Assembly: GCF_021502675.1 (NCBI RefSeq) | Contig: NZ_JAKFHA010000001.1 | Span: 125,400-189,399 of the forward strand | Direction: 5' to 3' | Source: Yinghuangia soli | GTDB taxonomy: Bacteria; Actinomycetota; Actinomycetes; Streptomycetales; Streptomycetaceae | Length of the DNA: 64,000 bases | Shown: piece after piece, positions 16,651 to 64,000 of the stretch | Position numbering within the stretch: position 1 is the first letter of the stretch | Layout: every line of letters begins with the position of its first letter | Notes under the pieces: generated by a model | What the model was told of the DNA's origin: nothing | The model's input: the letters and a program-made list of their open reading frames with translations, nothing else | Databases searched by the model: none | Program-made: the position numbers and the translations under genes

Positions 16651-19600
16651 TCAGCGTCGGCGCCCCTTCATGAATTTGAAGATACTGTCCTTGTCGGCGG
16701 TATAGCCGCCATTCAAACTGTACGAGACCTTGGCATTCTTGTAGACCGTGAGGAGCGCCCTGCAGTTCTGGCGAATCGGTCCACATGGTATCCGTTCACT
16801 GTAGATCCGCGTGACAGCCAGCGGATCAACTCCCCAACGCGCAAGCTCTTCAGCAATGACCACCTCCGCGTCCTTACCCTTGGGAATGTTCACGTTGACG
16901 TTGTGGAACAGTCCATCAGGCGTTTCGAACTCGAAGACGGCGACGTTCTGCCCTGCGCCGAGGTGTTCGTTTTCCAGGCGATACTCGACAGCCATCTCGG
17001 CAAGATCGCCTTCCCCCAAACCCACACGTTGGTACGCACTCGTCGGGTCGTCGTCTTCGCAATCCGGGTCGGATGCGCCGCCCGTGTTGTGGATGAGGGT
17101 GTCGGTGCCGGCTACGTCGACGTAGTAGGTGTGGATGCCGTCGACGGTGAGGTTGTGGACCTTGGCCTGGCCGGTCCACGCCTTGACGGCGGTGATCTGG
17201 ATCCACGTGCCGGACGAAGTGCGCAGCCATTGGCCGGGCTGGAGTTGGCCGGCGTCGAGCCATTCGTTCAGCTGCGGGACCCAGAAGGGGTGTCCCGCGG
17301 TGGCGGTGACGGTGCCGGTGGCCGAGCCCTTGTCGCCGTCGGTGTCGATGGTGATCTCGACGAGGTCCTTGAGGCCTTCGCCGACGATCGCGGCGGTGAC
17401 CTCGCGGATCTGGGTGATCCCGGTCTCGGGGTCGGTGGCCAGGACCTTGTCGCCGACCTTGACGTCACGGATCGGCTTGCGGGAACCGTCGGCCATCACG
17501 ACCGGGGTGTCACCGGTGAAGCTGTTGTCCGGAGGCAGACTGCCCCGCCTCGGGCACTGATCGGGTTCTTGCTGGTCGGGGCGGCGGTTCGGGGAGCCGT
17601 CGCTCTGGGGGGACTTGGTGGTGGGCACGTCCTTCGTGAACAGGTCCTGGGCGTGCTTGTCCGCGACCGTATTGGCGTTCTGCGCGGTGCCGGTCGTGCC
17701 CTTGGACGGGTCCCACGTGTTGTCGGCAGGACGCGCGACCACAGGCTTGGTCGGCGGCTTCGGGTCCGCCCGGGGCGGGTTCTTGCCGCCGTAGACGTTC
17801 TGCGGGACGACCGGCTTCGGCTTGACCGTCGGCTTCGGCTTGCCGGGGCCGGGCTTGCCGGGGCCGGGCTTCCCGGGGCCCGGCTTGCTCGGACCCGGGT
17901 TGCTCGGGCCGGGGTTGCCGCCGCCCGTCGGGCCGGTCGGCGGGGCCGGGTCCTGGGTTTGCGTCGGCGGGTTCTGCGGCTTCGGGCAGCCCGGAATGTT
18001 GGGGTTGGTCAGGCACGCCTTGCCTGGGCTCCTCGGAGACGGCGGCGGGGGCGGGCCGCTGCATTCACCGGAGCACGGCCCCGACGACGACTCTTCGTCG
18101 TCGAGCAGCTTCTTCAGGCGCTTGAGGGCCTTGAGCCCCTCTTTCGCCGCCTTCTGGACGCGGGCCCGGCACTTGGGGTCCTTGCCGCACTTCTTGATCA
18201 GGATCTTCACCAGCGCCGCGACCGCCAACCCGCAGAGCGGGCAGTGCCCGTCCGGGTCGGTGAGGTTCATCGGCTGGCCGTTGGCGTAGCCGTAGCGGTT
18301 GGACTGGATGGACGGGTTGGGGTTGAGCTGCCAGTCGTCACGGCTGGCGAAGTTGCCGGTGCCCGGGGTGTACCAGCGCGCGTGCATGTTCACCTCGCCG
18401 GTGGCCGGGTCGGTGTACGCGCCCTGGTAGCCGATCGACGACGAATCACCCTGCTGCGAGAGCTTGTTGCCGTACGGGTCGTACGCGGTGGAGCCGGCGA
18501 TCGTCTTGCCGTCCGCGGACAGCATCGCGATCAGGTCGTCATGCTGGTCGTTCCACGCCAAGCGCTTCTGACCGCCGCGGGTCATACCCAGCAGCGACCC
18601 GTCCGGGAGGCGGCTGAAGGTGTCGGTGCCGTCGGACGCCAGGTTGTTCGACATGCCCGCGTACGAGAAGCCCACGCTGCTGCGCGAGGAAACCCGGTCG
18701 AACGCGTCGTAGGCGTAGGTGACACTGCCGTCGCCGACCAGGCGGTCGAACGCATCGAATCGGAGCTGGCGGGTGTTGCCTGCGATGGTGCTCCCGGCCA
18801 GGGTGCCGCGCGCCGTGTAGGTGTACGTGTCCGGGCCGTCCGACAGCAGGCGGTTGCGCGCATCGTAGACCGCGGCGCGTCCGCCGTTCGAGGTGCGGTT
18901 GCCGGACGCGTCCCAGCCGTAAGCCACCGTGTTGGTGCCGTCGTTCCACGACGTCATGCGGTCGGCGAGGTCGTAGGCGTACGTGTTCTGCGTGGCGCCC
19001 GCGAGACCTGTCGTCTTCTTCGAGGTGAGCAAGTCGTCGTTGGAGTAGCCGTAGGTGACGGACGCGATCTCGGTCCCGCCGGACAGGATCCGGTCCGACT
19101 CCAGGCGCCCCCACGTGTCGTAGGTGTAGCGGCGGCCGTCGGCGGCAACACCGTTGTAGATCTCGGACTTGAGCTGTCCGGCGCCGTTGTACTCGTACGC
19201 CGCGGCGGTCCCTGTCACCGGGTCGACGGCCAGCGTCAGGTCGGAAGCCTGGTTGTAGGCGAAGGTGGCCGTGCCCGCGGCGTCGACCCGTGTGGTCAGC
19301 TGCCCGGCATAGTCGTAGGCGTAGGTGGCATTCCCGCCGGCACCGGACTGCGCGGTCATCAGGCCGCGGTCGTTCCACTGGTACGAGTTGTACTGCCCGC
19401 CCGGCGCGGATGCGGTGGAGATCCGGCCGGCCAGGTCATAGGTGAAGGCCTTGGCTTCGGTCGGGTTCCCGCCTCCGGTGCCGGTCTCCTGGAGCAGTTC
19501 GCCGAGCGCGGTGTAGGTGCGGTCGCGCACGACGCCGTCAGGGGCGGTCATCCGTACGACACGGCCCGCCGCATCGTAGGTGTTCGTCCAGGTGCGGTCC

Positions 19601-22600
19601 GCCAGGCCCGGATGGGCCGTGGTCGACGGCTCGATCGTGGACTCCGGGAGCCCCCACGGGTTGTAGGTGTAGTTGACGGGATTGCCTCGGCCGTCGCGCA
19701 TGAAGGTGCGCTGACCGGCGGCGTCGTAGCCGAAGCGGGTGGTGATCTGCTCGGTCGCCGAGACCTTCTCGACCAGCTCGGTCGGCTGCCCCAACGCGTC
19801 ATACGCATAGGTGCTCACGCTGCCGCGCGGGTCGGTGACCTGGGTGACGTTGCCGTCCGCGTCGTAGGCCAGCAGGGTGCTGCGGTTCAGCATCCCGTCG
19901 CTGTCGTACTGCTTGACCCGGGTCGTCCGGCCCAGCCGGTCGCGCGTGTTGACGTTCCACGTTCCGTCGAGGTTGTAGGCGTGTGTGACCTCGCCGAACG
20001 CGTTGTAGTCACTGGCGACGCCGCGGCCCAGCGGGTCCTTCTCGGAAAGGACGGCGCCCGCTGCGTCGTACGTCGCGCGCGACGTGCCGCCGTCCGGGGC
20101 GGTCACCGCGACCAAGTTGCCCGCGTAGTCGTAGGTGTAGCGGGTCGTGAGCGCCTGCACGGTCGGGTAGCGCTCGATGACCGTCGAGGTCAGCGGCCGG
20201 CCCAACTCGTCGTACGTCATCTCCGAACGTGCACCGGACGCGTCGACCGTGGCGAGCAGGTCGCCCGCCGGAGAGCTGAAGAAGCGCTCGGTGGTGGCGG
20301 GCTGGTTCGGCCGCGCCGGGCTGTGCCGCTCGGTGACCTGGCCGAGGTTGTCGTAGCGGTACGAGGTCACCTTGCCGAGCGGGTCGGTCTCGGTGAAGAC
20401 GCGGCCCAGCTCGTCGTACGCCGTCTTGGCGATCGGCACGATCGGTGTGGTGCCGCCCGGCGGGGTGTAGGAGGGGAGTTCGGCCTCGACCGGTCGGCCT
20501 GCCTTGTCGATGCGCACCTTGCTGGTACGCCCGTTCGGGTCGGTCGACTCGGTGTTCTCACCAAAGGCGTTGTAGCCGAGCACGCTGGTCGGGCGGCCGG
20601 CGGCGGACTGCTCGGAGTTCGCCGAGATGGCGACCGGCGGCGCCACGACGGCGACCACCCGGCCGAGTTCGTCGTACCGGTACGAGGTGGTGAACGCGGA
20701 GGGGTCGGCGCCGCTGGCGTTGCCGCGGGGCGTGGTCGTGTGCAGCACCAGGCCGCGCTGGTCGCGCTGGATGGTCGAGACGGCGTCGGCGACGGAGGCG
20801 TCGCCCTTGGCGGTCTGGCGAACCGCGCGGCCGACTGCGTCGTACGCGAACTCGGTGACGCGGCCCTCGCTCGGTCGGCCGACGCTGTCCGCCGTCATGC
20901 TGGTGACCCAGCCGTTGGCGTCGTAGGTCAGCGTGGTGCGTCGGCCGAGGTTCCCGGGGTCGAACAGTTCCGACGTCAGCAGGCTGCGGGCGTCGTACGT
21001 GCGCACGACGGTGTTGGTGCCGCCGGTGACCTGCCGGACGAGGTTGCCCACCCCGTCGTAGCTGTTCTGCTGCAGCACGATGTCCTGTGCGTTGCCCAGA
21101 TGGTCGCGCACCCCGAGTTGCCTGGCCTCGGCCAGCAGACCGTCGTCGTAGTACTTCATCGCGGTCGTGCGGCCCATGGCATCGGTCACCGAGGCGAGGC
21201 GCCCGCCGGGGTCGTACGCCCGCGATTCGAGCACCACGTCGCGCGGGGTGCCGGACGCATCGCCGTCCCAGCCGAGCACCTTCGTCTCGGCCAGTTGGCC
21301 GCGCGGGGTGTAGGCCAGTTGGGTGGTCGTGCCCTTGGCGTTGATCTGCTGGACGACCTGCCCGAAGGCGTCGTACAGGATCTTGGTGACCGCTCCTTCG
21401 GGATCGGTCAGCGTCCAGGGCCGGCCTTCCGGGTCGTACGCCACGGTCGAGGTCCGCGGCACTCCCCCACCGGTCAGGTCTTCCTGCGTCCCGGTCAGCG
21501 GCCGGCCGTCCTCGTCGTACGTACGCCGCTCGCGCGCGGTGTGCGTGACTCCGGTGACCTCGTTCTTGACGCCCGGACCGGTCACCGACACGACCCGGGA
21601 CATCCGGTCGTACTCGACCGTCGTGGTCACGCGCCGCGTGGAACCGGCCGGCAGTGTCTCGCCGGGCGTGCCGGCGACAACGGTCGAGACCTGGGTCTCG
21701 GTCGTCCGGCGCCCCAGCGCGTCGTACTGGTACTCGGTCCGCAGACCCGCGGCATCCTGCATCGCCGCCAAGTCGCCGTTCGCGTAGTACTGGTACGAGG
21801 TGACGCCGCCACCCGGCACCGTGATCGACTTCAGCAGCGCGGGCGGCACGGTTCCCCCGCCGACCGCGGCCTCGGTCCCGTCCGTGTACGCCCGGGTCGT
21901 GGTGTGCCCGCCGGGCGCGACGACCGTGACCGGCAAACCCTTGTCGTTGTAGGTGTACGCGGTCTTGTACGTGTTGTCCGTGGCGGTCGCCGAGCGCGCG
22001 TCGCGCTCAGCGGTCGGCTGGCCGTTGCGCGGGTCGAGCGGGTTGGCGTCGTTGTTGTAGTACTCGGTGTACGAGGTCCAGCACGAGTCCTGGTCGCGGC
22101 ACGACGTCCGCGAGACGGTATTGCCCAGTTCGTCGTGCCCGGTGATCAGGAAGTGGCCGTTGGGGTCGGTCACGGTGTGCAGCAGGCCCGCCGTGTCGTA
22201 CCCGTAGTTGGTCCTGCCGCCCGCGACGTCGTCGAGCTGCGCGAGGCGCATCCCATTGAGGACGTCGTAAGTGCGCCTCTCCACGCGGCCTGCCGGGTCG
22301 GTGACCTCGACGGTGGCGCCCAGTGCGGACGCCGTGGGTGCCACGTTCGCGGCGTAGTGCGCGGCGACGGTATCGGCCGTCAGCGGCTGCTCGTAGAAGG
22401 CGACCTCGTCGATGCCGCCCTTGAAGTGGCCGCGGATGTTGGTCGGCTTGGCCGGCCAGGCCACATCGTTGACCGCGCCCGCGCCGATGGTCACGTACGG
22501 GTCGACTGTGTAGCCCTGGGCGTTGCGTTCACCGGCCAGCGTGCCGTCCAGGTACAGGCGCTGCTTGTTGTTGGGAGCGTCGAAGGTCAATACGGCATGG

Positions 22601-25600
22601 TGCCAGCGCCCGTCGACCACAGTCCGATCTCGCGTGAGCGGTGTGGGCTGCCCGGTCCACACGAGTCCGTAGAGCTTGTGGTCGGTCCCCACGTAAAGCA
22701 TGGGTGTGGCAGGTGTGTTCGCCTGCGTGTACTCGAATTCCTGGGTCGAGTAGCTGAGCAGCACACCAGGGCCGTCGGCCTTGAACCACAGTTCGGTGGA
22801 GAACTGCGACTTGCCCGACAGTTGTCCCTTGGGCAGGCGGATGTACGACTTGGCGCCGTCGAAGCCCATGGCCGAGTTGTCGCCCGGGCCGAACGCCCCC
22901 GCGACGTTGCGCTTGGTGTACCAAGCGCCGCCCTCGTCGGTGGTGATCGGTTCCACGAGGCTGTGCACGAGCGGGCCGCCCCGCCCGTCCAGCGGCCAGT
23001 ACCCGACCGGCCCGGCGTTCTGGACCAATGCGCGGTACTCGACCGGGGCTTTGCCGAGGCCCGCGGCGTGCGCCTGAATGCTCGGCGCGTCGAGGGCCTT
23101 GCGGTAGACGGCGACTTCGTCGATGGTGCCGAGGAAGTAGCTCTTGCCGGGCTGCGCCCGGGGCCAATCCCCGGTGGTGCCGGCCCCGATGTACGTGCGC
23201 AGCGCCCGCTCGTGGAAGACGGGGCCCTGGGCGGTGCCGACCACGGCACCATCCAGGTAGAGCGTGTGTGTCTGGCCATCCGTGGTCAGGGCGACGTGGT
23301 GCCACTTATTGTCGTTCACCGGTTGCGCGGTGACGATCTGCGGCATCGCGACGGAGCTGTAGAACCTCCCGCGGAGTTTGCCGTCCAGGTCGACGTAGAG
23401 GGCGGGTATCCAGTCCTGTTGGACCGCATCCTCCATGGAATTCGACTGGTAGGCGAAGAGCACACCGGGGTTCTCGGTCTGGAACCACATTTCGACCGAT
23501 ACCTGCGACGAGCCGTGGACGAGGTCCTCGGGCAGCTCGACGTAGCTCTGCCCGGTGAACCACGGGGCGGCCTCGTTGGCGAGGGCGCCCTTCGAACTGC
23601 CCCAGGAGACGTTCTTGCTGGTGCCGTCGCCGCTCCCCACCCGCACCGCCTGCTGCGAGTGCACCTGCCCGCCGTCCGGCTCGTCCAGGCGCCAGTACGA
23701 CAGCGGCCCCGAGGACGCGACCTGCGCCCGGTAGCCTGCCCCCGCGCCCGTCCCGGTGGCCTTGCGGGAGGCGAAGTGCTCGACGACCGTGGCCTCGTCC
23801 AGCGGCCGGTGGTAGACCGCGACCTCGTCGATCGAGCCGTACAGCGAGGCGTACGGACCGCCGAGGCGGGACGGCCAGGAGTCCGCGATGACACCCGCGC
23901 CGATGGTGACGTACCGGTCCGGGATCGAGATCGGCGCCGCGCCGGTGCCGATCTTGCGGCCGTCCACGTACAGGGTCTGGCCGGTGCCGTCGCCGCTCAG
24001 TGCGGCGTGGTGCCACTTGCCGTCGAGGACCGAGAAGTCGGTGGTGATCGGGTTGATGCTGCCGTGCCAGAACTCGCCACGCAGCTTCCCATCGCCGCCC
24101 ACGTACAGGATGGGCGTGCCGGCGCTGTTGTAGTTGCCGTCGGTCACCTTGACCGGCGAGGTGCCGGCCAGGACGCCCGCGCCCTTCGCCTGGAACCACA
24201 GCTCCACGGAGAATTCCGTGCGGTTCGCGAAGAGGTACTCCGGCAGGTACATGTGCGACCGGAAGCCGTCGAAGCTCGCGGCCTTGTCGTCGTTGGGCGC
24301 GAAGGCGCCTTCCGCACCCAGTCCCACCCAGCCCAGCCAGGCGAGTTCGCTGCCGACGACGGCGTTCTTCAGGGTGCCGTTGGAGGTCTTCTCGCCGAGC
24401 CGCCAGTAGCCGCGCGGTGCCGCCGCCCACACATTCTGCTCGTACGCGGTCGACGCGCCGGTGTAGCCGGGCGTCCCGACCTTCCAGACGCCGCCGTTGC
24501 CGTCGATGACCTGCGAGACGCGGTCGGTGGCGTTGTCGTACGAGATCTGCGAGTACGTGCGGCCGGTCGGCAGCGTCACCTTGGACAGCTGGGACACGGA
24601 CCGGCCGGCACCCCAGTGCTCCTGGACCACCTGGGTGCTGAAGTCGCGGGTGTACAGCGCGACATCGTCGATCTCGCCCTCGAAGTAGCCCTTGGGGTCG
24701 TTCTCCCAGCGGCTCGGCCACGACGAGTTGCTGCCGCCGGCCCCGATGGTGGCGACCGGGTCGAACGCCGCGATCGTGCCGCTGCGCGACCCGACCTCGA
24801 CGCCGTCCAGGAACAGCGCCTGGGCATCGCCGGACGCGGTGATCACCGCGTGGTGCCACTGCCCGTCGTTGACCGCCTGCGCGGACACCATCGGGTCGAT
24901 CGAGCCGTGCCAGAACTGGCCGCGGAGCTTGCCGTCGGCGCCGACGTTGAGCACCGGCACGCCGTTGGTGGTGTGCTCCTGCTGTTCGAGCGGCTTGGTG
25001 CTGAGGCTGAAGAGGGTGCCGCCCTTGGTGGTACGGAACCACAGTTCGGCGGTGAAGTACGGGGTGCTGCGCTGCGGGTCGTCCGGCAGCTTCACGTACG
25101 AGTCGGTGCCGTTGAAGACCGCCGAGCCGTCCGTCGAGCCGCCGGGGCCCGCGGCGGCCGTGCCGGCCGTGTTCCAGGCGACCGCGGTGTCGGTGCCGAC
25201 GCGCTCGACGACCTCGCTCTTGACCTGGCCCGTCGGCGCGTCGCCCATCCGCCAGTACGACAGCGGGTTGTGGTCGACGACCGCGGTCCGGTAGAGCGAA
25301 CCGGACTGGTACTCGTACACCGTGCAGGCGGTGGCCGAGGTCGGCGGGCAGACCTTGACCAGCTTGTCGCCTTCGTACGTGTAGTCCCAGGCCGAGACCA
25401 CGTTGCCCGGCTGGACCGGGTCGGTCGCCGCCCGGGTGACGTGCGCGCCCGTCCAGGTGAAGTGCAGGGAGCGCCCGGACGCCGAGTCGGTGGCCTTGCT
25501 GAGCCGCCCGTCGGTGTACGTCAGGAGTTGCTCGCGGCCGCCGATGTCGCGGACCTTGACCAGGCGCCCGGCCTTGTCGAAGACGAATGTCGTCCCGGTC

Positions 25601-28497
25601 GCGTCGAGCAGCGTCCAGGCCACGACCTCGCGGGTGTAGAAGATCGCGCCGAACGGCCCGGCGATCTCGGTGTAGCTGAACTCGACCTTCAGCTCGGACG
25701 GGTCTCCCGGCGGCGGCGTGTACGAGCCGTCCGGGTTCCCGCCGAAGCGGCCTTGGCGGCCATCCGCGTAGGTGAGCAGCACATCGTCGGCTCGCGGGGA
25801 CTTGGATCCCAACTTGGCATACAGATTGCGGTATTGGACCTGGATGCGCATATCCCAACGGGACGCCCAGCCCGCACCGAACGCCGTGTCGACGCGCGGG
25901 TCGCGGCTGTTGTACGTGCGCTTGACCGCCAGCTCGGGGCCGGCCACCTGGACGGCGGCATCGGTCGCAGCGGTGGTGTAGTTGCCGACCTGGGCGTTGA
26001 ACTCGTGCCCGTCGGTGCCGGTCGCCAGGTGCGAGGTAATGGCGGGCTGCGGCGGCTGGGTGGAGAACAGGTGCGCCGGCGGTTCGCCGCTTCCCGCGTT
26101 GCGGTCGCCGACGTACGCGTACCAGGCGTACGTCTCGCCCCACTCGAGGTTCCACGACGACGGGACGCGCCAGGACGTGGGGAGCCCCCAGCCCGAGTCG
26201 CGGCAGTTCACCTTCGTGTCGTCGCCGACGACATCGCAGACCACGTACTTGAAGTCCAGCCCCATGCCGGGCCAGTTGTCCGGGTCGTGCCCTTCGGCCC
26301 GCAGGACCGGGGTGAGCGTGGTGAACACCTGGCCGCTGTTCGGCCAGCGCGCGTCCAGCCACGGCGCGATGTTCGGCGCGCCGATCCCGACGGCCGGGCC
26401 GAGGTCGACGCCCTGCCACGAGAACCTGGTCGTGCCGTAGTGGTCCATGTCGAACCGGATGACATACGAACCCGCGGGCAGCGCCTTGATGGTCGCGTCC
26501 AGGGTGACCGTGCCGCCGGGCGGCACATCGTGCGGCATGTTCGTCCACGCGCTGTACGTGTTGGTGACGTCCTGCCCCGCTGCGGTCCAAATGCTGTACG
26601 TCAGCCTGAAGTTGTTGGTGGGCGTCCAGGTGTACGCGCTGCGGTTCGTGACGGTGACGCGCATGGCGCCGTCCTGGTTCGCGAGCACATCGCGGACCAT
26701 CTGGCCGGTCTGGTACGTCGCTCCGTACGGCGTGTGGGTGATCGTCAGGTACGGCTTGCCGCCCGGGTAGTTGTTGCTCCCGAACTGCTTCCAGCCGAAA
26801 CTGTCGGTCTCCGAAGCGCGCACGCTCAGGCCGTAGTTCGGTGCGCCGTTGACCCAGCCCTGCACCAGGTCGCGGCCGGCCAGGCCGAGGTCGATGCCCT
26901 CCCACGCCGCATCGCCGCACGGGTAGCTCGTGCTGCCTTCCGGGCGCCAGCCGTGCGCGAAGCTCTTCGTCGCCAGCGCGCCGCCGACCGCCGGCCCCGG
27001 GTACGTCTTGAGGGTGGTCGCATTCCACGGAGCGGTGACGGCGTGGATGGTGACCGGCTTGGGCTTGCACGAGTACGCCCAGGTGTTGAACAGCGAGAGC
27101 TGCACGCCCTGGATGTAGTGCTTGGACAGCTGCGAGGACACGTTCGGGAAGGCCAGGTACGACATGGCACGTGTCGTACCGCCGTCGTGCGTGCCGACCT
27201 TGAGGACGGTGTCCGAGGAGAAGTTGGTCGAGCTGTTCCGGCGCACGTAGGTCGAAGCGGACGTGTCGATGTTCACCGTCGGGTCGACTCGGACCGGGAA
27301 GACGCGCTTGGGGTCGGCCAGCCAGGCCTGGTCGATGACGACCTTGAGGGACTGGCCGCCGCCGGGGCGGTCCACGATTTCGAACCGCACGCCGTCGGAG
27401 AACGCGCCGTCGCCCGAACCGGGATCGAAGGAGGAGTCCTCCATCCAGCCCTTCGGGGTCCGGGCGCGCTCGGTGCCGGCCGCGTCGAAGAAGACGACGT
27501 CGCCGTCCGCGATCTTCGCGGTGAGCCCGGCCAGGTGCAGCGGGAAGACCCATTCGGTGGGCGCCGCCGCCGAGTTGAGGACCAGGGTCTCCTTGATGGC
27601 GGTGCTGCCGGCGTGGAACTCGATGTCCGCGCCGGGGCGGACGTCCTTGTAGGTGATGCGGTTGCCGTCGACCTGACCGGGGGCTGCCGCGGCGCCTTCC
27701 ACGCCGTAGGAGATGCCGAGGCCGTCGAAGGGGCCGAGTGCGGCGATGGACGGAGCGTCGGCAGTGGCGCCGAAGGCGACGGGGGTCTCGCCGAGCTTGG
27801 TCTGCCAGCCGGCCTGCGCGGATGCGGATGCGGGGGCCTGGGCGGCCGGGGCCTTCGCATCGGGCTTCGCTTTCCCGGACGGGTTCGCGGGTGCGTTCGC
27901 GGCCACCAGGGTGGTGTCGATCGGCTTCCAAGTGCCGTCCGCCACCTTGACGTTGACGGGCTCTTCGTACTGCTTGGTGGTGAAAGAGCCGTCGGCGTTG
28001 GCGAACGTCACCGAGGTCTCGGTGGCCTGCTCCGGGAGTTCCTTGCTGGTCGCCGGGTCGAAGCCGGTCCGGCCCGCCCTGACGTCGACCTTGGGCGCCT
28101 CGCCGTCGCTCAGGGCCCGAACGGTGGTCCTGGGCGCGGCACCCTTCACAGGGTTCTGCGGCCCGGACTTGACGCCCTCGTCCGCGGGCAGCTGGCCCGG
28201 GGCGACACCCGGCCGACCGCCGCCTTCGGTATCCGAGGAGGTCGCGTCGGACTTGGCGTCGTGCCCGCGGCCGTCCGCCGAACCGGCGCGCTGCTGCGGT
28301 GTCTTCGGCGCACCAGGGGTGCCCGGGGTCCACGGCCGTGCGCTTGCGGAGTTCGCGGATGCGGAGGTCGCCAGGGCGGCGCCCTCGGTGGTGACGGTGA
28401 AGGCGAAAGCGACGAGGCTGGCGACGGCGATCCGCCGTTTCGCCTGGCGGCTCGTCATGAACCGCACGTACCACGAACCACGACGGCCGACAGGCAC
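16651..28497 (-). CDS. giant secreted RHS/YD-repeat polymorphic toxin with Hint and deaminase-like tip
   Basis: 3948 residues. Signal peptide with hydrophobic core VASLVAFAFTV; DNRLRE-type domain about 410-590; start of the RHS shell (DUF6531-like) about 836-880; four LamG/concanavalin-like domains between about 1110 and 2050, each with a YWRL/YWPL and FNGTDSYVKLP-like signature; YD repeats about 2070-3320; RHS core (MHARWYTPGTGNFASRDDW) near 3360; Gly-Lys-Pro linker about 3525-3560; Hint module about 3657-3800 starting SFTGDTPVVMADG and ending LIHN; toxin 3805-3948. The toxin holds D3876-A-E3878 and P-C3905-x6-C3912 in the context IYSERIPCGPIRQNC, the zinc-binding layout of the nucleic-acid deaminase superfamily (closest to XOO_2897-like toxins in my memory). 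The RHS shell should encapsulate the toxin and Hint should release it. GGGGG lies seven bases before the GTG start; an ATG at 28458 is the alternative. Confidence 0.93.
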   Translation of the reverse strand: MPVGRRGSWYVRFMTSRQAKRRIAVASLVAFAFTVTTEGAALATSASANSASARPWTPGTPGAPKTPQQRAGSADGRGHDAKSDATSSDTEGGGRPGVAPGQLPADEGVKSGPQNPVKGAAPRTTVRALSDGEAPKVDVRAGRTGFDPATSKELPEQATETSVTFANADGSFTTKQYEEPVNVKVADGTWKPIDTTLVAANAPANPSGKAKPDAKAPAAQAPASASAQAGWQTKLGETPVAFGATADAPSIAALGPFDGLGISYGVEGAAAAPGQVDGNRITYKDVRPGADIEFHAGSTAIKETLVLNSAAAPTEWVFPLHLAGLTAKIADGDVVFFDAAGTERARTPKGWMEDSSFDPGSGDGAFSDGVRFEIVDRPGGGQSLKVVIDQAWLADPKRVFPVRVDPTVNIDTSASTYVRRNSSTNFSSDTVLKVGTHDGGTTRAMSYLAFPNVSSQLSKHYIQGVQLSLFNTWAYSCKPKPVTIHAVTAPWNATTLKTYPGPAVGGALATKSFAHGWRPEGSTSYPCGDAAWEGIDLGLAGRDLVQGWVNGAPNYGLSVRASETDSFGWKQFGSNNYPGGKPYLTITHTPYGATYQTGQMVRDVLANQDGAMRVTVTNRSAYTWTPTNNFRLTYSIWTAAGQDVTNTYSAWTNMPHDVPPGGTVTLDATIKALPAGSYVIRFDMDHYGTTRFSWQGVDLGPAVGIGAPNIAPWLDARWPNSGQVFTTLTPVLRAEGHDPDNWPGMGLDFKYVVCDVVGDDTKVNCRDSGWGLPTSWRVPSSWNLEWGETYAWYAYVGDRNAGSGEPPAHLFSTQPPQPAITSHLATGTDGHEFNAQVGNYTTAATDAAVQVAGPELAVKRTYNSRDPRVDTAFGAGWASRWDMRIQVQYRNLYAKLGSKSPRADDVLLTYADGRQGRFGGNPDGSYTPPPGDPSELKVEFSYTEIAGPFGAIFYTREVVAWTLLDATGTTFVFDKAGRLVKVRDIGGREQLLTYTDGRLSKATDSASGRSLHFTWTGAHVTRAATDPVQPGNVVSAWDYTYEGDKLVKVCPPTSATACTVYEYQSGSLYRTAVVDHNPLSYWRMGDAPTGQVKSEVVERVGTDTAVAWNTAGTAAAGPGGSTDGSAVFNGTDSYVKLPDDPQRSTPYFTAELWFRTTKGGTLFSLSTKPLEQQEHTTNGVPVLNVGADGKLRGQFWHGSIDPMVSAQAVNDGQWHHAVITASGDAQALFLDGVEVGSRSGTIAAFDPVATIGAGGSNSSWPSRWENDPKGYFEGEIDDVALYTRDFSTQVVQEHWGAGRSVSQLSKVTLPTGRTYSQISYDNATDRVSQVIDGNGGVWKVGTPGYTGASTAYEQNVWAAAPRGYWRLGEKTSNGTLKNAVVGSELAWLGWVGLGAEGAFAPNDDKAASFDGFRSHMYLPEYLFANRTEFSVELWFQAKGAGVLAGTSPVKVTDGNYNSAGTPILYVGGDGKLRGEFWHGSINPITTDFSVLDGKWHHAALSGDGTGQTLYVDGRKIGTGAAPISIPDRYVTIGAGVIADSWPSRLGGPYASLYGSIDEVAVYHRPLDEATVVEHFASRKATGTGAGAGYRAQVASSGPLSYWRLDEPDGGQVHSQQAVRVGSGDGTSKNVSWGSSKGALANEAAPWFTGQSYVELPEDLVHGSSQVSVEMWFQTENPGVLFAYQSNSMEDAVQQDWIPALYVDLDGKLRGRFYSSVAMPQIVTAQPVNDNKWHHVALTTDGQTHTLYLDGAVVGTAQGPVFHERALRTYIGAGTTGDWPRAQPGKSYFLGTIDEVAVYRKALDAPSIQAHAAGLGKAPVEYRALVQNAGPVGYWPLDGRGGPLVHSLVEPITTDEGGAWYTKRNVAGAFGPGDNSAMGFDGAKSYIRLPKGQLSGKSQFSTELWFKADGPGVLLSYSTQEFEYTQANTPATPMLYVGTDHKLYGLVWTGQPTPLTRDRTVVDGRWHHAVLTFDAPNNKQRLYLDGTLAGERNAQGYTVDPYVTIGAGAVNDVAWPAKPTNIRGHFKGGIDEVAFYEQPLTADTVAAHYAANVAPTASALGATVEVTDPAGRVERRTYDVLNGMRLAQLDDVAGGRTNYGYDTAGLLHTVTDPNGHFLITGHDELGNTVSRTSCRDQDSCWTSYTEYYNNDANPLDPRNGQPTAERDARSATATDNTYKTAYTYNDKGLPVTVVAPGGHTTTRAYTDGTEAAVGGGTVPPALLKSITVPGGGVTSYQYYANGDLAAMQDAAGLRTEYQYDALGRRTTETQVSTVVAGTPGETLPAGSTRRVTTTVEYDRMSRVVSVTGPGVKNEVTGVTHTARERRTYDEDGRPLTGTQEDLTGGGVPRTSTVAYDPEGRPWTLTDPEGAVTKILYDAFGQVVQQINAKGTTTQLAYTPRGQLAETKVLGWDGDASGTPRDVVLESRAYDPGGRLASVTDAMGRTTAMKYYDDGLLAEARQLGVRDHLGNAQDIVLQQNSYDGVGNLVRQVTGGTNTVVRTYDARSLLTSELFDPGNLGRRTTLTYDANGWVTSMTADSVGRPSEGRVTEFAYDAVGRAVRQTAKGDASVADAVSTIQRDQRGLVLHTTTPRGNASGADPSAFTTSYRYDELGRVVAVVAPPVAISANSEQSAAGRPTSVLGYNAFGENTESTDPNGRTSKVRIDKAGRPVEAELPSYTPPGGTTPIVPIAKTAYDELGRVFTETDPLGKVTSYRYDNLGQVTERHSPARPNQPATTERFFSSPAGDLLATVDASGARSEMTYDELGRPLTSTVIERYPTVQALTTRYTYDYAGNLVAVTAPDGGTSRATYDAAGAVLSEKDPLGRGVASDYNAFGEVTHAYNLDGTWNVNTRDRLGRTTRVKQYDSDGMLNRSTLLAYDADGNVTQVTDPRGSVSTYAYDALGQPTELVEKVSATEQITTRFGYDAAGQRTFMRDGRGNPVNYTYNPWGLPESTIEPSTTAHPGLADRTWTNTYDAAGRVVRMTAPDGVVRDRTYTALGELLQETGTGGGNPTEAKAFTYDLAGRISTASAPGGQYNSYQWNDRGLMTAQSGAGGNATYAYDYAGQLTTRVDAAGTATFAYNQASDLTLAVDPVTGTAAAYEYNGAGQLKSEIYNGVAADGRRYTYDTWGRLESDRILSGGTEIASVTYGYSNDDLLTSKKTTGLAGATQNTYAYDLADRMTSWNDGTNTVAYGWDASGNRTSNGGRAAVYDARNRLLSDGPDTYTYTARGTLAGSTIAGNTRQLRFDAFDRLVGDGSVTYAYDAFDRVSSRSSVGFSYAGMSNNLASDGTDTFSRLPDGSLLGMTRGGQKRLAWNDQHDDLIAMLSADGKTIAGSTAYDPYGNKLSQQGDSSSIGYQGAYTDPATGEVNMHARWYTPGTGNFASRDDWQLNPNPSIQSNRYGYANGQPMNLTDPDGHCPLCGLAVAALVKILIKKCGKDPKCRARVQKAAKEGLKALKRLKKLLDDEESSSGPCSGECSGPPPPPSPRSPGKACLTNPNIPGCPKPQNPPTQTQDPAPPTGPTGGGNPGPSNPGPSKPGPGKPGPGKPGPGKPKPTVKPKPVVPQNVYGGKNPPRADPKPPTKPVVARPADNTWDPSKGTTGTAQNANTVADKHAQDLFTKDVPTTKSPQSDGSPNRRPDQQEPDQCPRRGSLPPDNSFTGDTPVVMADGSRKPIRDVKVGDKVLATDPETGITQIREVTAAIVGEGLKDLVEITIDTDGDKGSATGTVTATAGHPFWVPQLNEWLDAGQLQPGQWLRTSSGTWIQITAVKAWTGQAKVHNLTVDGIHTYYVDVAGTDTLIHNTGGASDPDCEDDDPTSAYQRVGLGEGDLAEMAVEYRLENEHLGAGQNVAVFEFETPDGLFHNVNVNIPKGKDAEVVIAEELARWGVDPLAVTRIYSERIPCGPIRQNCRALLTVYKNAKVSYSLNGGYTADKDSIFKFMKGRRR

Positions 28498-59543: not shown

Positions 59544-60638
59544 CTACAGCGGCCAGGGCCCAGGCCCCGGGCGCTTGGCCGCCGGGTCGACGACGCGCAC
59601 GACCGGGGTGGGGTCCTGGCCCTGCTGCGTGACGATCGCCAGGGCCTTGCCGTCCTCCGACCAGGCCAGTCCGCGTTCGAGGAGGCGCTCGCCGCGGGGC
59701 AGCCGGAGGCTGACCGGCGGGCGGCTCGCGTCCGGTGCGTGGAGGAAGACCGATGCCTTGTCCGGGCCTGCGGTGCGGACGCCCATGGCCAGCCACTTGC
59801 CGTCCGGCGAGGTTCCGACGGAGTTCGGGGACTGGCCGGTAGGCCAGGCGCCGGAGCTGCGCATCTCGCGGTCCGCGGTGAAGGCGTCGACGCTGCTCTG
59901 CGACCCTGCGGCGGTGTAGAAGAGCCGGCCGTCCGCGGCGACGGCGAGGTCGTTGAGGTTGCTCCCGCCGCGGTTCTCGCGGCCGTCCTCGACGAGCTTG
60001 CCGCCCTCGACGCGGTAGAGGCGCACGTTCACGGGACTGATGTGCGGCTGGCTCGCGACGATGCGGGCGGCTGCCCCGTCGCCGCCCTCGGCGAGCAGCG
60101 GAGCGCGCTCGAAGCGCCGCTGGTCGGTTTCGGGCTTGGCGGGGTCGACGGCCTGGTGGCCGTAGCTCGCCACCGCCGGTTCGACGGAGGTGTCCAGCCG
60201 CCCGATCTCCCCGCTCCAGGCGTCGCATCCGTAGCCGAACCACACGTCGGTGCCGGTGCGGACGAGGTGTGTCGGGCAGCTGTGCGCGTTCAGCCGGTAG
60301 CGGGCCCGCTCGGTGAGCGTCGCGGTGTCGATCGCGGAGATGGCGTCCCCGGCGGCGAGGGCGACGTAGAGAGTCGAGCCGTCTGCGCTGAGCACCATGC
60401 CGGATGCCCCGAACTGGCCGTCCAGGACCGTCTTCCCGCGCCCGTCGAACCCGACGGAGACCACCTGATTGGCGGACGCCCCGGAGGAGTAGTAGACGCG
60501 CTTGTTCGCGCTGTCGACCACGACATCGCCGACGTCGCCGACCTGCGCGGCCGACGGGAGCGTCGCCGCACCGACAGCCGGAACTCCCAGGAGAGACAGG
60601 CCGATCACTGCACCGGCCAGCCGAATCTTCACCGCCAT
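59544..60638 (-). CDS. secreted YncE/TolB-like beta-propeller protein
   Basis: 364 residues. Signal peptide MAVKIRLAGAVIGLSLLGVP with a likely cut after AVGAA. Repeated beta-propeller blades of the type VGDVVVDSANKRVYYSSGAS, GMVLSADGSTLYVALAAGDA, LNDLAVAADGRLFYTAAGSQ and NSVGTSPDGKWLAMGVRTAG. ATG at 60638 has GGGAG upstream. It follows the second RHS toxin/immunity pair on the same strand, with 60 bases between. Surface propellers accompany RHS genes in some streptomycetes, but a functional tie is not shown. Confidence 0.8.
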   Translation of the reverse strand: MAVKIRLAGAVIGLSLLGVPAVGAATLPSAAQVGDVGDVVVDSANKRVYYSSGASANQVVSVGFDGRGKTVLDGQFGASGMVLSADGSTLYVALAAGDAISAIDTATLTERARYRLNAHSCPTHLVRTGTDVWFGYGCDAWSGEIGRLDTSVEPAVASYGHQAVDPAKPETDQRRFERAPLLAEGGDGAAARIVASQPHISPVNVRLYRVEGGKLVEDGRENRGGSNLNDLAVAADGRLFYTAAGSQSSVDAFTADREMRSSGAWPTGQSPNSVGTSPDGKWLAMGVRTAGPDKASVFLHAPDASRPPVSLRLPRGERLLERGLAWSEDGKALAIVTQQGQDPTPVVRVVDPAAKRPGPGPWPL

Positions 60639-60698
60639 CGAACGCTCCCAGCTGGAGAAAGTAAAGGAGGACGTGCGCACTTCGTGCACCGCGCCGTA

Positions 60699-61133
60699 CT
60701 AGCCGCGGAGGATCAAGGTCGAGCCGTCCCGGGGCATCCCCGACCGGTCGCTCTCCGGCGTTTCGCGGTGCGTCCAGACGCTGAATCCGACGCAGGCGAC
60801 GAAGCTGTCGTCCGCCTCGGGATCGAGCAGCAGGCAGCGGAGACGGTCGGTGCAGTCGCTCCGGATCCCGGCGAACCTCGCTATTTCCCGGGCGAGTTCA
60901 TGGCCGGCCTCACGCAGGGCGATGCCTTCGTACGTCGTCTTGAGCTTCATGCCGACGACGCCGAAGAAGGTCGCCTCGACGACCTCGCCCGCGGGCACCC
61001 GGTCGACGCTGCGCAGGGTGAGCTCCGAATGCCCGACCTGGTAGCGCCACGGGCGGATCCGGCGCGGCAGGTGGAGCGGGAGGCCGGTCGCCGCCCGGCC
61101 GCCGGGTTCAGGATCCGAAGGGATTGGCGACAC
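60699..61133 (-). CDS. candidate immunity protein for the second RHS toxin
   Basis: 144 residues, no signal peptide or known domain. Central region TLRSVDRVPAGEVVEATFFG, then KLKTTYEGIALREAGHELAR and VACVGFSVWTHRETPESD. The frame opens at GTG 61133, which overlaps the 3' end of the RHS gene by 26 bases; a later start is possible because the first 25 residues are Pro/Arg-rich. Position, orientation and small size are those of immunity genes. The assignment rests on context, not on similarity. Confidence 0.6.
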   Translation of the reverse strand: MSPIPSDPEPGGRAATGLPLHLPRRIRPWRYQVGHSELTLRSVDRVPAGEVVEATFFGVVGMKLKTTYEGIALREAGHELAREIARFAGIRSDCTDRLRCLLLDPEADDSFVACVGFSVWTHRETPESDRSGMPRDGSTLILRG

Positions 61134-64000
61134 TGCCCTGCCCCCGTCGGTAGAAGGTCACACGGTCCCACGAGCCCGGATTGTCCCTGATGAGGCTCAG
61201 CTCCCACGCGGTGACGTGCTCGCCGTCCCGGGGATCGTGGCGGGCACCGATCCGGGCCGCGGCCACCGGGTCGTCGATGCCGTCGAGATTGAAGTGGATC
61301 TTGGTACGTCCGTCCTTCACGTACCCCTTCAGCTCGTTCACCCAGTCATCGCCGCCGGACGGCCAGTGCTTGTACGACTTCGCCTTCTTGGAATCGGCGA
61401 AGTCCATCAGGTACATCGGGTCGTCGTCGTACGAGCTCAGCCCGAGGGCGATGGACTCGCAGCCGTCCGAGTTGTGGACGAGGACCGGCGTCGCGCCCGC
61501 GACCACGTAGTACGTGTGGAAGTCGGCGACCGTCAGGTTGTGGACGCGTTGCGAAGCCGACTGCCCGGCGACCGCCGTCACCTGGACATACGTGCCGGCC
61601 CCCGTGCGCAGCAGCTGCCCCGCACGCAGTTCGCTCGCGGGCAGCCACCTCCGCAAGTCCTCGACCCAGAAGGGGTGGTTCCCGGTGGCGGTGACCGCGG
61701 CCGTCGCCTCGCCCGAGGGGCCGTCGGTGTCCACGTGGACCGTGACGAGGTCCTTCGGGCCCTCGCTCGTGATGCCCGCGGTCACCGCGCGCGAGCCGGC
61801 GGCGCCCGTCTCCGGGTCGGCGGCCGCCACCTTGTCGCCCGGGCGGACCTCCTCGATCGGCTTCGCGCTGCCGTCCGCCATCAGCACCGGCGTACCGGGG
61901 ACGAAACTGCTCCGCCGCGCGCACGAACCGCCTTGCGGCTTCGGGGCGGACACGGCCGGCTTCGCCTTCGCCGGGCCTCGCCTCTTGCCGCCGATGCCGA
62001 TCAGCGGGACCTCGGCCAGCGGGATGTCGAGGCGCTCCGACAGCTGCGCCTGGAGTTCCTCGGCGGTCAGGTCCTTGATCTCGTCCTTGAGGACGTCCTT
62101 GATCTCCTGCTTGAACTCGCGCTTGACCTCCTTGAACGCGAGCTTCCCGTACTTCGCCGCCTTCGCCGCCGTGGCCGCGTACCCGATGCCGGGGACCGCA
62201 GAGGCCAGCGACAGTGCCGCGTCCTCGTAGTTGCCTTCGGCCGCGTACCAGGCCGCGTTGGCGACGTCGGCGACCTCGCCGACGAACGGGATGGTGCCGA
62301 CCACGTCCAGCACGGCGTGCCCGAGCGCGGCCCAGAAGTGGCCGTCGATCTCGATGTTGGAGACCGGGTTGCCGCCCGCGAAGGAGTAGCGGTTGGTGCT
62401 CCACGGGTCGGTGCCGAGGTTGAGGTCGGCGAGGGCCCCGTTGTACATGTCGCGCGACAGGAACTGGTTGCGGCCCGGGCTGTAGCCGCGGAATCCCATG
62501 TCGTAGGTCTGCGAACCGCCGTCCCAACGCATGGAGTTGAAGCGGTACGAGTTGAACGCCTCGCCGCCTCCGCCGCCGCCCGGGTCGGAGGGCTTGTCGG
62601 GGCCGCTGAAGGCCTTGGGGTCGTCGCTGCCGTACGCGGTGTAGCCGTAGGTGGCCTTGGTGTCGCCGTTGCGGTCGGTGACGGCTTCCACGTCCGCGTG
62701 CGGGCCATAGCCGAAGTACGTGGTCTCCTTGGTCTTGTCGGAGTCCGACTTCGGCTTGGTCTGCGAGAGCCGCTCGCCGAACGGCCCGTACTCGTACTCG
62801 GCCTTGACCTCGTCGCCGGTCTTCTCGCTGACGACTTCCTTGCCGAGGCCCAGGTACTCGAACTCGGTCGTCTTCGCCGGCCCCGCGGCCGGGTCGGTCG
62901 TGCTCCGGGTGCGGCGGTCCAGCGGGTCGTAGACCGTGCTGGTGACGGTCGGTTCGCCGCTGCCCGGCGAGGCCCAGGCCCGGTGCTCGGTGACCCGGTC
63001 GAAGCCGTCGTACGTGTAGTTCTCGCTGGCCTTGCCGTTCTGCGTGATGCGGCTCAGCCGGCCGAAGGGGTCGTACGTGTAGGCGAACGCGCCGCCCGCG
63101 TCCTGGACCGTGGACGACACGAGCCGGTTGCGGTCGTACGTGTACTCGGTCTTCTTCTTGGCCACGACCTGCCGGGTCACGTTGTTGGCGGCGTCGTGCT
63201 CGTATTCCTCGGTGGTGTCCTCACCGCCGGAGGTCTTGGCGACCTTCTCGATCCGGTTCCGCGGGTCGTACATGAACACCGAGGTGCGGTCGAGGAATTC
63301 GCCCTTCTTGTCGGCGTTCATCGTGCGCGCCTCGTCGCGCGCCCGGTTGCCGTCGGTGTCGTACGAGATCTCGTGGCGGGCGACCAGTTCCCCGCCGGAC
63401 TTCTTCTCCTCGGTGGTGAAGGTCAGCCCGTCGAGGTGGTACGTGTTGGCGACCTTGTTGCCGTTGGCCTTGACCTGGGTTTCGAGGCGGCCGAGGAGGT
63501 CCCACGTGAAGGTCGTCGTCTGCGGTTTCGCGTCCGGGCCGCGCCCCGGGGTGGTGGCCTCGAGGGCCAGACCGCGGGGGTCGTAGGCGTACGTCGACTC
63601 CTCGCCGTCGCGGGTGCGCTTGAGCAGGTTGCCGTTCTCGTCGTAGCCGTAGGCGGTGGTGTGCGCGGGCTCGTTGCCGCCCTGGAACTCCTTGACCTGG
63701 GAGGGGCGTCCGAGCGGGTCGTAGCCGGTTTCGAAGCGGCTGCCCGGACCGTCCTGCGTCCGGTCGGCCACCTCGGTCTGATTGCCTTCGGCGTCGTAGC
63801 GGTACGCGAATTCGTGCGCAGGCGGCTCCGCGACGCGACCCGCGCGGGCTGTCGCGACCACCCGTACCGCGTCCGCGACCAGGTCGCCGTCGGCGCCGTC
63901 CGCGGTGAGGGTGATGCGGGCGTCGCGGTCCTGCGGCAGCTTGAAGGTGCCGAGCGGGACCCACTGGCCGCGTTCCTTCCGCTCCTCCAGGCCCTGGAGC
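61108..64000 (-). CDS. second RHS/YD-repeat toxin with Hint module (5' end outside window)
   Basis: 964 codons visible; the frame is open to the window edge. The first visible residues (ERGQWVPLGTF, LVADAVRVVATA) look like a golvesin-type domain. YD repeats follow (FAYRYDAEGNQTEVADRTQD; FAYTYDPFGRLSRITQNGKA), then the RHS core (YDMGFRGYSPGRNQFLSRDM and NRYSFAGGNPVSNIEIDGH), a helical pretoxin region with EDAALSLASAVPGIGYAATA, a Hint domain (SFVPGTPVLMADGSAKPIEE to TPVLVHN) and a C-terminal toxin of about 120 residues with TKIHFNLDGIDDP and AWELSLIRDNPGSWDRVTFY. The toxin resembles what I recall as polymorphic toxin type 27; this is uncertain. Downstream is an overlapping immunity candidate. 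Confidence 0.9.
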   Translation of the reverse strand, partial: LQGLEERKERGQWVPLGTFKLPQDRDARITLTADGADGDLVADAVRVVATARAGRVAEPPAHEFAYRYDAEGNQTEVADRTQDGPGSRFETGYDPLGRPSQVKEFQGGNEPAHTTAYGYDENGNLLKRTRDGEESTYAYDPRGLALEATTPGRGPDAKPQTTTFTWDLLGRLETQVKANGNKVANTYHLDGLTFTTEEKKSGGELVARHEISYDTDGNRARDEARTMNADKKGEFLDRTSVFMYDPRNRIEKVAKTSGGEDTTEEYEHDAANNVTRQVVAKKKTEYTYDRNRLVSSTVQDAGGAFAYTYDPFGRLSRITQNGKASENYTYDGFDRVTEHRAWASPGSGEPTVTSTVYDPLDRRTRSTTDPAAGPAKTTEFEYLGLGKEVVSEKTGDEVKAEYEYGPFGERLSQTKPKSDSDKTKETTYFGYGPHADVEAVTDRNGDTKATYGYTAYGSDDPKAFSGPDKPSDPGGGGGGEAFNSYRFNSMRWDGGSQTYDMGFRGYSPGRNQFLSRDMYNGALADLNLGTDPWSTNRYSFAGGNPVSNIEIDGHFWAALGHAVLDVVGTIPFVGEVADVANAAWYAAEGNYEDAALSLASAVPGIGYAATAAKAAKYGKLAFKEVKREFKQEIKDVLKDEIKDLTAEELQAQLSERLDIPLAEVPLIGIGGKRRGPAKAKPAVSAPKPQGGSCARRSSFVPGTPVLMADGSAKPIEEVRPGDKVAAADPETGAAGSRAVTAGITSEGPKDLVTVHVDTDGPSGEATAAVTATGNHPFWVEDLRRWLPASELRAGQLLRTGAGTYVQVTAVAGQSASQRVHNLTVADFHTYYVVAGATPVLVHNSDGCESIALGLSSYDDDPMYLMDFADSKKAKSYKHWPSGGDDWVNELKGYVKDGRTKIHFNLDGIDDPVAAARIGARHDPRDGEHVTAWELSLIRDNPGSWDRVTFYRRGQGSVANPFGS

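What the first reader, a model, noticed from the sequence alone, without database searches (positions are those of the whole stretch)
59544..64000. Second RHS-Hint toxin locus with an unrelated tip and an overlapping immunity candidate
A second RHS gene carries a similar Hint module (SFVPGTPVLMADG versus SFTGDTPVVMADG) but a different C-terminal domain, and its stop codon lies inside the start of the next gene (26-base overlap). Two such loci about 33 kb apart suggest a toxin-rich region, perhaps exchanging tips by recombination through the Hint segment. The immunity candidate has no recognisable family.
Basis: partly seen in the sequence, partly recalled or inferred. Interest (0 to 1): 0.7.

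Follow-up and report, generated by a model that had tools for sequence, protein, structure and literature searches.

The report
RHS toxin tip with paired immunity
This is the end of a large secreted bacterial weapon protein and, overlapping it, the gene that probably protects the producer from it; the pair recurs across actinobacteria and belongs beside a barely studied toxin family (Ntox27) for which the founding survey listed no immunity protein.

Summary
A 2,068-aa minus-strand RHS protein (its C-terminal 963 aa lie in the window) carries a PT-HINT domain and a 120-aa tip unlike that of the first RHS locus, an XOO_2897-like deaminase. Its stop codon overlaps a 144-aa gene by 26 bases. Neither half matches Pfam or NCBIfam. 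Profile comparison makes the tip a divergent sister of Ntox27 (PF15531; P 2.5e-14), and the neighbour family also flanks bona fide Ntox27 tips (P 2.2e-18); the 2012 survey listed no immunity protein for Ntox27. The same cassette rides on ALF-repeat (umbrella-type) proteins. Across tip plus Ntox27 only Thr87 and Glu90 are invariant, with no conserved His, Lys or Arg. The model (pLDDT 93) most resembles TIR/SEFIR, deoxyribosyltransferase and CD38-like domains, but weakly. I tentatively favour Glu-dependent N-glycosidase (NAD-type) chemistry over the earlier RNase guess. Recent tip exchange between the two window loci is not supported.

The parts
61108..64000 (-). C-terminal 963 aa of a 2,068-aa RHS-HINT polymorphic toxin (gene continues about 3.3 kb beyond the window)
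61468..61881 (-). PT-HINT domain (PF07591) immediately before the tip
   Evidence: residues 707-844 of the window part, E 1.4e-18
61111..61470 (-). 120-aa toxin tip, divergent sister of Ntox27
   Evidence: no family; relatives; hhalign to Ntox27 set, P 2.5e-14; model pLDDT 93.0
61201..61212 (-). TAWE codons of the tip; Thr87 and Glu90 are invariant in 31 of 31 sequences; Glu90 is the candidate catalytic residue
   Evidence: one search places Glu90 in helix 86-95 between strands 57-61 and 104-108; pocket geometry was not inspected
60699..61133 (-). 144-aa immunity candidate, beta-rich, family not in Pfam or NCBIfam
61108..61133 (-). 26-base overlap of toxin end and immunity start
   Evidence: overlaps of about 23 bases in relatives

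Best explanation
An RHS-HINT polymorphic toxin with its cognate immunity gene. The long RHS protein is exported, the RHS repeats shelter the C-terminal tip, HINT cuts after ...LVHN and frees a 120-aa enzyme that acts in the cytoplasm of a competing bacterium. The overlapping 144-aa gene is made together with it and its product binds and blocks the tip in the producer and its kin. The tip is a divergent sister of Ntox27. Its chemistry is most likely Glu90-dependent cleavage of an N-glycosidic bond (NAD(P)+ or another nucleotide) on a compact TIR/deoxyribosyltransferase-like fold. Shown here: anatomy, conserved linkage, homology to Ntox27, invariant Thr and Glu. Inferred from the families: export, HINT release, neutralisation. 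Tentative: fold relationship and substrate. I put toxin plus cognate immunity at about 0.93 and N-glycosidase chemistry at about 0.4; the score below is for the whole statement.
For: Tip and neighbour searched separately hit the same places in 10 of 14 tip genomes; 11 of 12 named loci keep the neighbour. Tip and neighbour divergence correlate, Mantel r 0.63, P 0.0002 over 24 pairs, more than tip and HINT, 0.62 against 0.37 over 14 loci. Tip profile to Ntox27 profile P 2.5e-14; neighbour profile to proteins next to Ntox27 P 2.2e-18. Only Thr87 and Glu90 invariant in 31 sequences, best His column 39%, best Lys/Arg column 61%. After realignment the first 21 PDB entries, Z 6.8 to 4.3, are all SEFIR/TIR, deoxyribosyltransferase/DNPH1/Rcl or CD38-like cyclase domains. 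NAD(P)+-depleting tips with blocking immunity partners are established elsewhere (PMC12605009, PMC12356396).
Against: Foldseek finds no significant structural match (best E 0.36); Z below 8 can be a common arrangement. Profile comparison with TIR_2 and deoxyribosyltransferase sets is no better than with response regulator and resolvase controls. PDB sequence search gives only noise. Zhang et al. 2012 tabulated Ntox27 as a predicted RNase. No toxicity, cleavage or neutralisation has been measured.
Confidence: 0.45

Rival explanations
1. Same toxin-immunity system, but the tip is a metal-independent ribonuclease, as Zhang et al. 2012 tabulated Ntox27; it would cut tRNA, rRNA or mRNA of the target cell.
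For: Ntox27 is listed under predicted metal-independent RNase toxins (PMC3482391); RNases are common among such tips.
Against: No His, Lys or Arg column is conserved across tip and Ntox27 sequences; the listed structural neighbours are not RNase folds except PIN-type rows at Z 3.3-3.5.
Confidence: 0.3
2. Same toxin-immunity system, but the tip has another Glu-dependent activity, for example ADP-ribosyl transfer or modification of a protein or nucleic acid, on a generic alpha/beta fold.
For: Only a Thr and a Glu are invariant; structural similarity is too weak to fix the chemistry.
Against: No specific match to a transferase family was found.
Confidence: 0.2
3. The 144-aa gene is not an immunity gene but an accessory or an unrelated passenger that travels with the tip.
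For: Neutralisation has not been tested; the family is not in curated libraries.
Against: It follows the tip across different carriers (RHS-HINT and ALF repeat), diverges with the tip more than the HINT does, and is kept intact beside tip remnants in G332 and G358, as orphan immunity genes are.
Confidence: 0.05

Closest known systems
Ntox27 (PF15531), polymorphic toxin type 27
   Same: Profile match over 110 columns, shared LG, LDG and TxWE motifs, C-terminal position after RHS/HINT, and the same downstream protein family
   Different: Below detection by the PF15531 model; lacks the RxW motif given for Ntox27; shorter between the first strand and the LDG motif
Umbrella toxin protein UmbC (ALF-repeat polymorphic toxins, PMC11062931)
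   Same: Relatives of the tip in Streptomyces orinoci (L049) and Kutzneria (L054) are the tips of ALF-repeat proteins, with the immunity homologue downstream
   Different: The window protein is an RHS-HINT protein without ALF repeats
TIR/SEFIR, nucleoside deoxyribosyltransferase and CD38-like NAD(P)+-consuming domains
   Same: Similar compact alpha/beta arrangement with one invariant Glu in the helix after a central strand
   Different: No significant sequence or Foldseek similarity; activity untested

Membership tests
RHS-HINT polymorphic toxin system | RHS repeats followed by a pretoxin HINT domain and a variable C-terminal tip | tested here: met
   RHS 3.9e-78, PT-HINT 5.4e-18; different tips on the genome's other RHS-HINT proteins
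RHS-HINT polymorphic toxin system | Immunity gene directly downstream, conserved with the tip | tested here: met
RHS-HINT polymorphic toxin system | Toxicity of the tip and its neutralisation by the neighbour | not testable with these tools
   needs experiment
Ntox27 (PF15531) | Score above the curated model cut-off | tested here: not met
   no match at E up to 1 and 10; search of the own genome within: none
Ntox27 (PF15531) | Conserved D and E | tested here: met
   Asp63 aligned with LDG Asp (28 of 31), Glu90 (31 of 31)
Ntox27 (PF15531) | RxW motif | tested here: not met
   the tip has GSW there; Trp101 is not invariant among its relatives
Ntox27 (PF15531) | Alpha+beta fold and ALF/RHS/HINT carriers | tested here: met
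   description in PMC3482391
TIR / nucleoside deoxyribosyltransferase-like N-glycosidases | Shared fold | tested here: inconclusive
   best Z 6.8, rmsd 3.6, 106 residues; Foldseek best E 0.36
TIR / nucleoside deoxyribosyltransferase-like N-glycosidases | Invariant catalytic Glu in the helix after a central strand | tested here: inconclusive
   Glu90 invariant and in such a helix; superposition on catalytic residues not possible without coordinates
TIR / nucleoside deoxyribosyltransferase-like N-glycosidases | Detectable profile similarity | tested here: not met
   no better than control families
TIR / nucleoside deoxyribosyltransferase-like N-glycosidases | Cleavage of NAD(P)+ or a nucleoside | not testable with these tools
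   needs experiment

The most novel reading that the evidence does not exclude
Ntox27 and this sister family are NAD(P)+ or nucleotide N-glycosidases of the TIR/deoxyribosyltransferase type rather than RNases, and the neighbouring beta-rich family is their dedicated immunity family, used on both RHS and umbrella toxin carriers.
Probability: 0.35. Interest if true: 0.6.

Novelty: new variant of a known kind. Interest (0 to 1): 0.42.

Why it matters
It gives Ntox27-type tips, found in several actinobacterial families, a candidate immunity family where the founding survey listed none; it links RHS and umbrella toxins through one shared cassette; and it offers a single-residue test (E90A plus NAD(P)+ measurement) that separates NAD-type chemistry from the older RNase guess.

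Tried and rejected
Direct family scans of tip and neighbour in Pfam and NCBIfam gave nothing useful, apart from one relative that passes the Ntox27 cut-off, so relatives had to supply the link. PDB sequence search with both profiles gave only noise. Viral contigs hold no relative of the tip and plasmids no match to tip or neighbour, so a phage or plasmid origin has no support here. Profile comparison with TIR_2, deoxyribosyltransferase, response regulator and resolvase sets did not discriminate. No barnase/EndoU/RelE-like fold was among the listed structural matches, which excludes nothing. The best PDB match of the immunity model is an uncharacterised Neisseria gonorrhoeae protein, 5v77, Z 6.5, 87 residues, rmsd 3.5; its function is unknown to me. 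Recent recombination between the two Hint segments was looked for and not found. A first correlation script failed on its motif patterns, and the next picked up too few HINTs; it was redone.

Full report
What is there. The minus strand carries, in order of transcription, an RHS gene that runs off the window, an overlapping 144-aa gene, and a beta-propeller-like gene that I do not count as part of the system. In the assembly the RHS frame is 2,071 codons long, and a start gives a 2,068-aa protein with a hydrophobic N-terminal segment, weak DUF6531, eleven RHS stretches, Golvesin_C and PT-HINT. The last 120 residues after ...TPVLVHN are the tip. The toxin stop (61110-61108) lies inside the start of the next gene (GTG at 61133): 26 bases of overlap. 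The first RHS locus of the window has a different tip, an XOO_2897-like deaminase (PF14440, E 9.7e-11).

Is the pair real. I searched 394 genomes of the same taxonomic family with the tip and, separately, with the neighbour. The tip was found in 14 genomes (some of the matches weak or broken); in 10 of them the neighbour search hits directly downstream on the same strand (G000, G089, G158, G193, G216, G332, G355, G358, G369, G380). A scan of named genomes gave 12 loci in Streptomyces, Actinokineospora, Actinoplanes, Nocardiopsis, Saccharothrix, Kutzneria, Actinomadura, Kitasatospora and Catenulispora (at least the two Kitasatospora loci, L058 and L059, are the same places as G089 and G158). 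Eleven have an intact homologue of the neighbour downstream; in the twelfth (L055) I found only broken frames. Overlaps of about 23 bases between toxin end and immunity start recur. Divergence of tip and neighbour is correlated across 24 pairs (Mantel r 0.63, P 0.0002), more than tip with HINT (0.62 against 0.37 over 14 loci). In G332 and G358 only 29 to 50 residues of a tip are matched beside an intact neighbour, the pattern of orphan immunity genes.

What family. Tip and neighbour match nothing in Pfam or NCBIfam. One relative reached by the tip search, L028, passes the PF15531 Ntox27 cut-off. Profile-profile comparison of 12 tips with 14 Ntox27-type sequences gives probability 98.3% and P 2.5e-14 over 110 columns. 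Independent searches with the Ntox27 model land beside members of the neighbour family in G049, G141 and G145, and proteins downstream of strong Ntox27 hits form one family with the window's immunity protein (P 2.2e-18; sequences). A few Ntox27 tips have a different downstream protein (L075, L069 and others), so the association is common, not universal. The survey that defined Ntox27 (PMC3482391) gives it as alpha+beta with D, E and RxW, under predicted metal-independent RNases, with ALF, RHS and HINT carriers, and lists no immunity protein. The tip keeps D and E but not RxW, and misses the model cut-off, so I call it a sister of Ntox27, not a member.

How it may work. Across 31 sequences only Thr87 and Glu90 are invariant; Leu9-Gly10, Leu62-Asp63-Gly64 and Trp89 are nearly so; the best His column is 39% and the best Lys/Arg column 61%. 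That speaks against a metal-independent RNase, which usually needs His or basic residues (general knowledge). The AlphaFold2 model is confident (pLDDT 93.0, pTM 0.86). Foldseek finds nothing significant (best E 0.36), but after realignment the first 21 PDB entries, Z 6.8 to 4.3, are all SEFIR/TIR, nucleoside deoxyribosyltransferase/DNPH1/Rcl or CD38-like cyclase domains. In the viral library the first row and several others are deoxyribosyltransferases and one is a TIR protein, all insignificant. Glu90 is in the helix that follows a central strand, as the catalytic Glu of TIR and deoxyribosyltransferase enzymes is (my knowledge). Sequence profiles do not support this relation, and Z below 8 can be a common arrangement, so I hold the N-glycosidase reading at about 0.4. 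NAD(P)+-depleting tips with blocking immunity partners are established in other polymorphic toxins (PMC12605009, PMC12356396), and a new TIR-like NADase family was recently recognised by distant similarity to TIR and deoxyribosyltransferase domains and a conserved Glu (PMC13174449).

Mobility. The same cassette sits on RHS-HINT proteins and on ALF-repeat proteins of Streptomyces orinoci (ALF E 6.4e-81) and Kutzneria (1.9e-27), the repeat found in UmbC of the umbrella toxins (PMC11062931); the S. orinoci locus also has a nearby protein that looks trypsin-like (by eye). The window's HINT is 41-54% identical to other HINTs whatever their tip. Between the two window loci the HINT DNA is 69% identical over 394 bp without long exact blocks, so a recent exchange between them is not indicated.

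Limits. Export route, HINT cleavage, toxicity and neutralisation are inferred from the families. I had no coordinates of the models, no joint model of the pair, and no experiment. The counts include some loci found in both collections, and related genomes are not independent.

Noticed in passing
window 16651-28497 (-): The first RHS protein of the window (3,948 aa) ends in an XOO_2897-like deaminase tip (PF14440, E 9.7e-11).
   Followed up: partly
window 59544-60689 (-): A beta-propeller-like protein with a signal-like N-terminus lies directly downstream of the immunity gene; only sub-threshold Pfam and NCBIfam matches.
   Followed up: no
L012 3-6200 (contig C11 of the window's genome): A third RHS-HINT protein of this genome (HINT 53% identical) with yet another tip, beginning ACERFTDEYLYRGVAQGHWEYENASKG, family not determined.
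   Followed up: no
L025 (G332) and L024 (G358): Intact immunity homologues beside only a short C-terminal remnant of the tip, as orphan immunity genes are.
   Followed up: partly
L049 2536-6757: Streptomyces orinoci ALF-repeat (umbrella-type) protein carries a 65-66% identical tip and the immunity homologue; a trypsin-like protein lies nearby.
   Followed up: partly
L075 and L027, downstream of the tips: These Ntox27-type tips are followed by a different, longer protein that looks like one shared family, perhaps an alternative immunity family.
   Followed up: no
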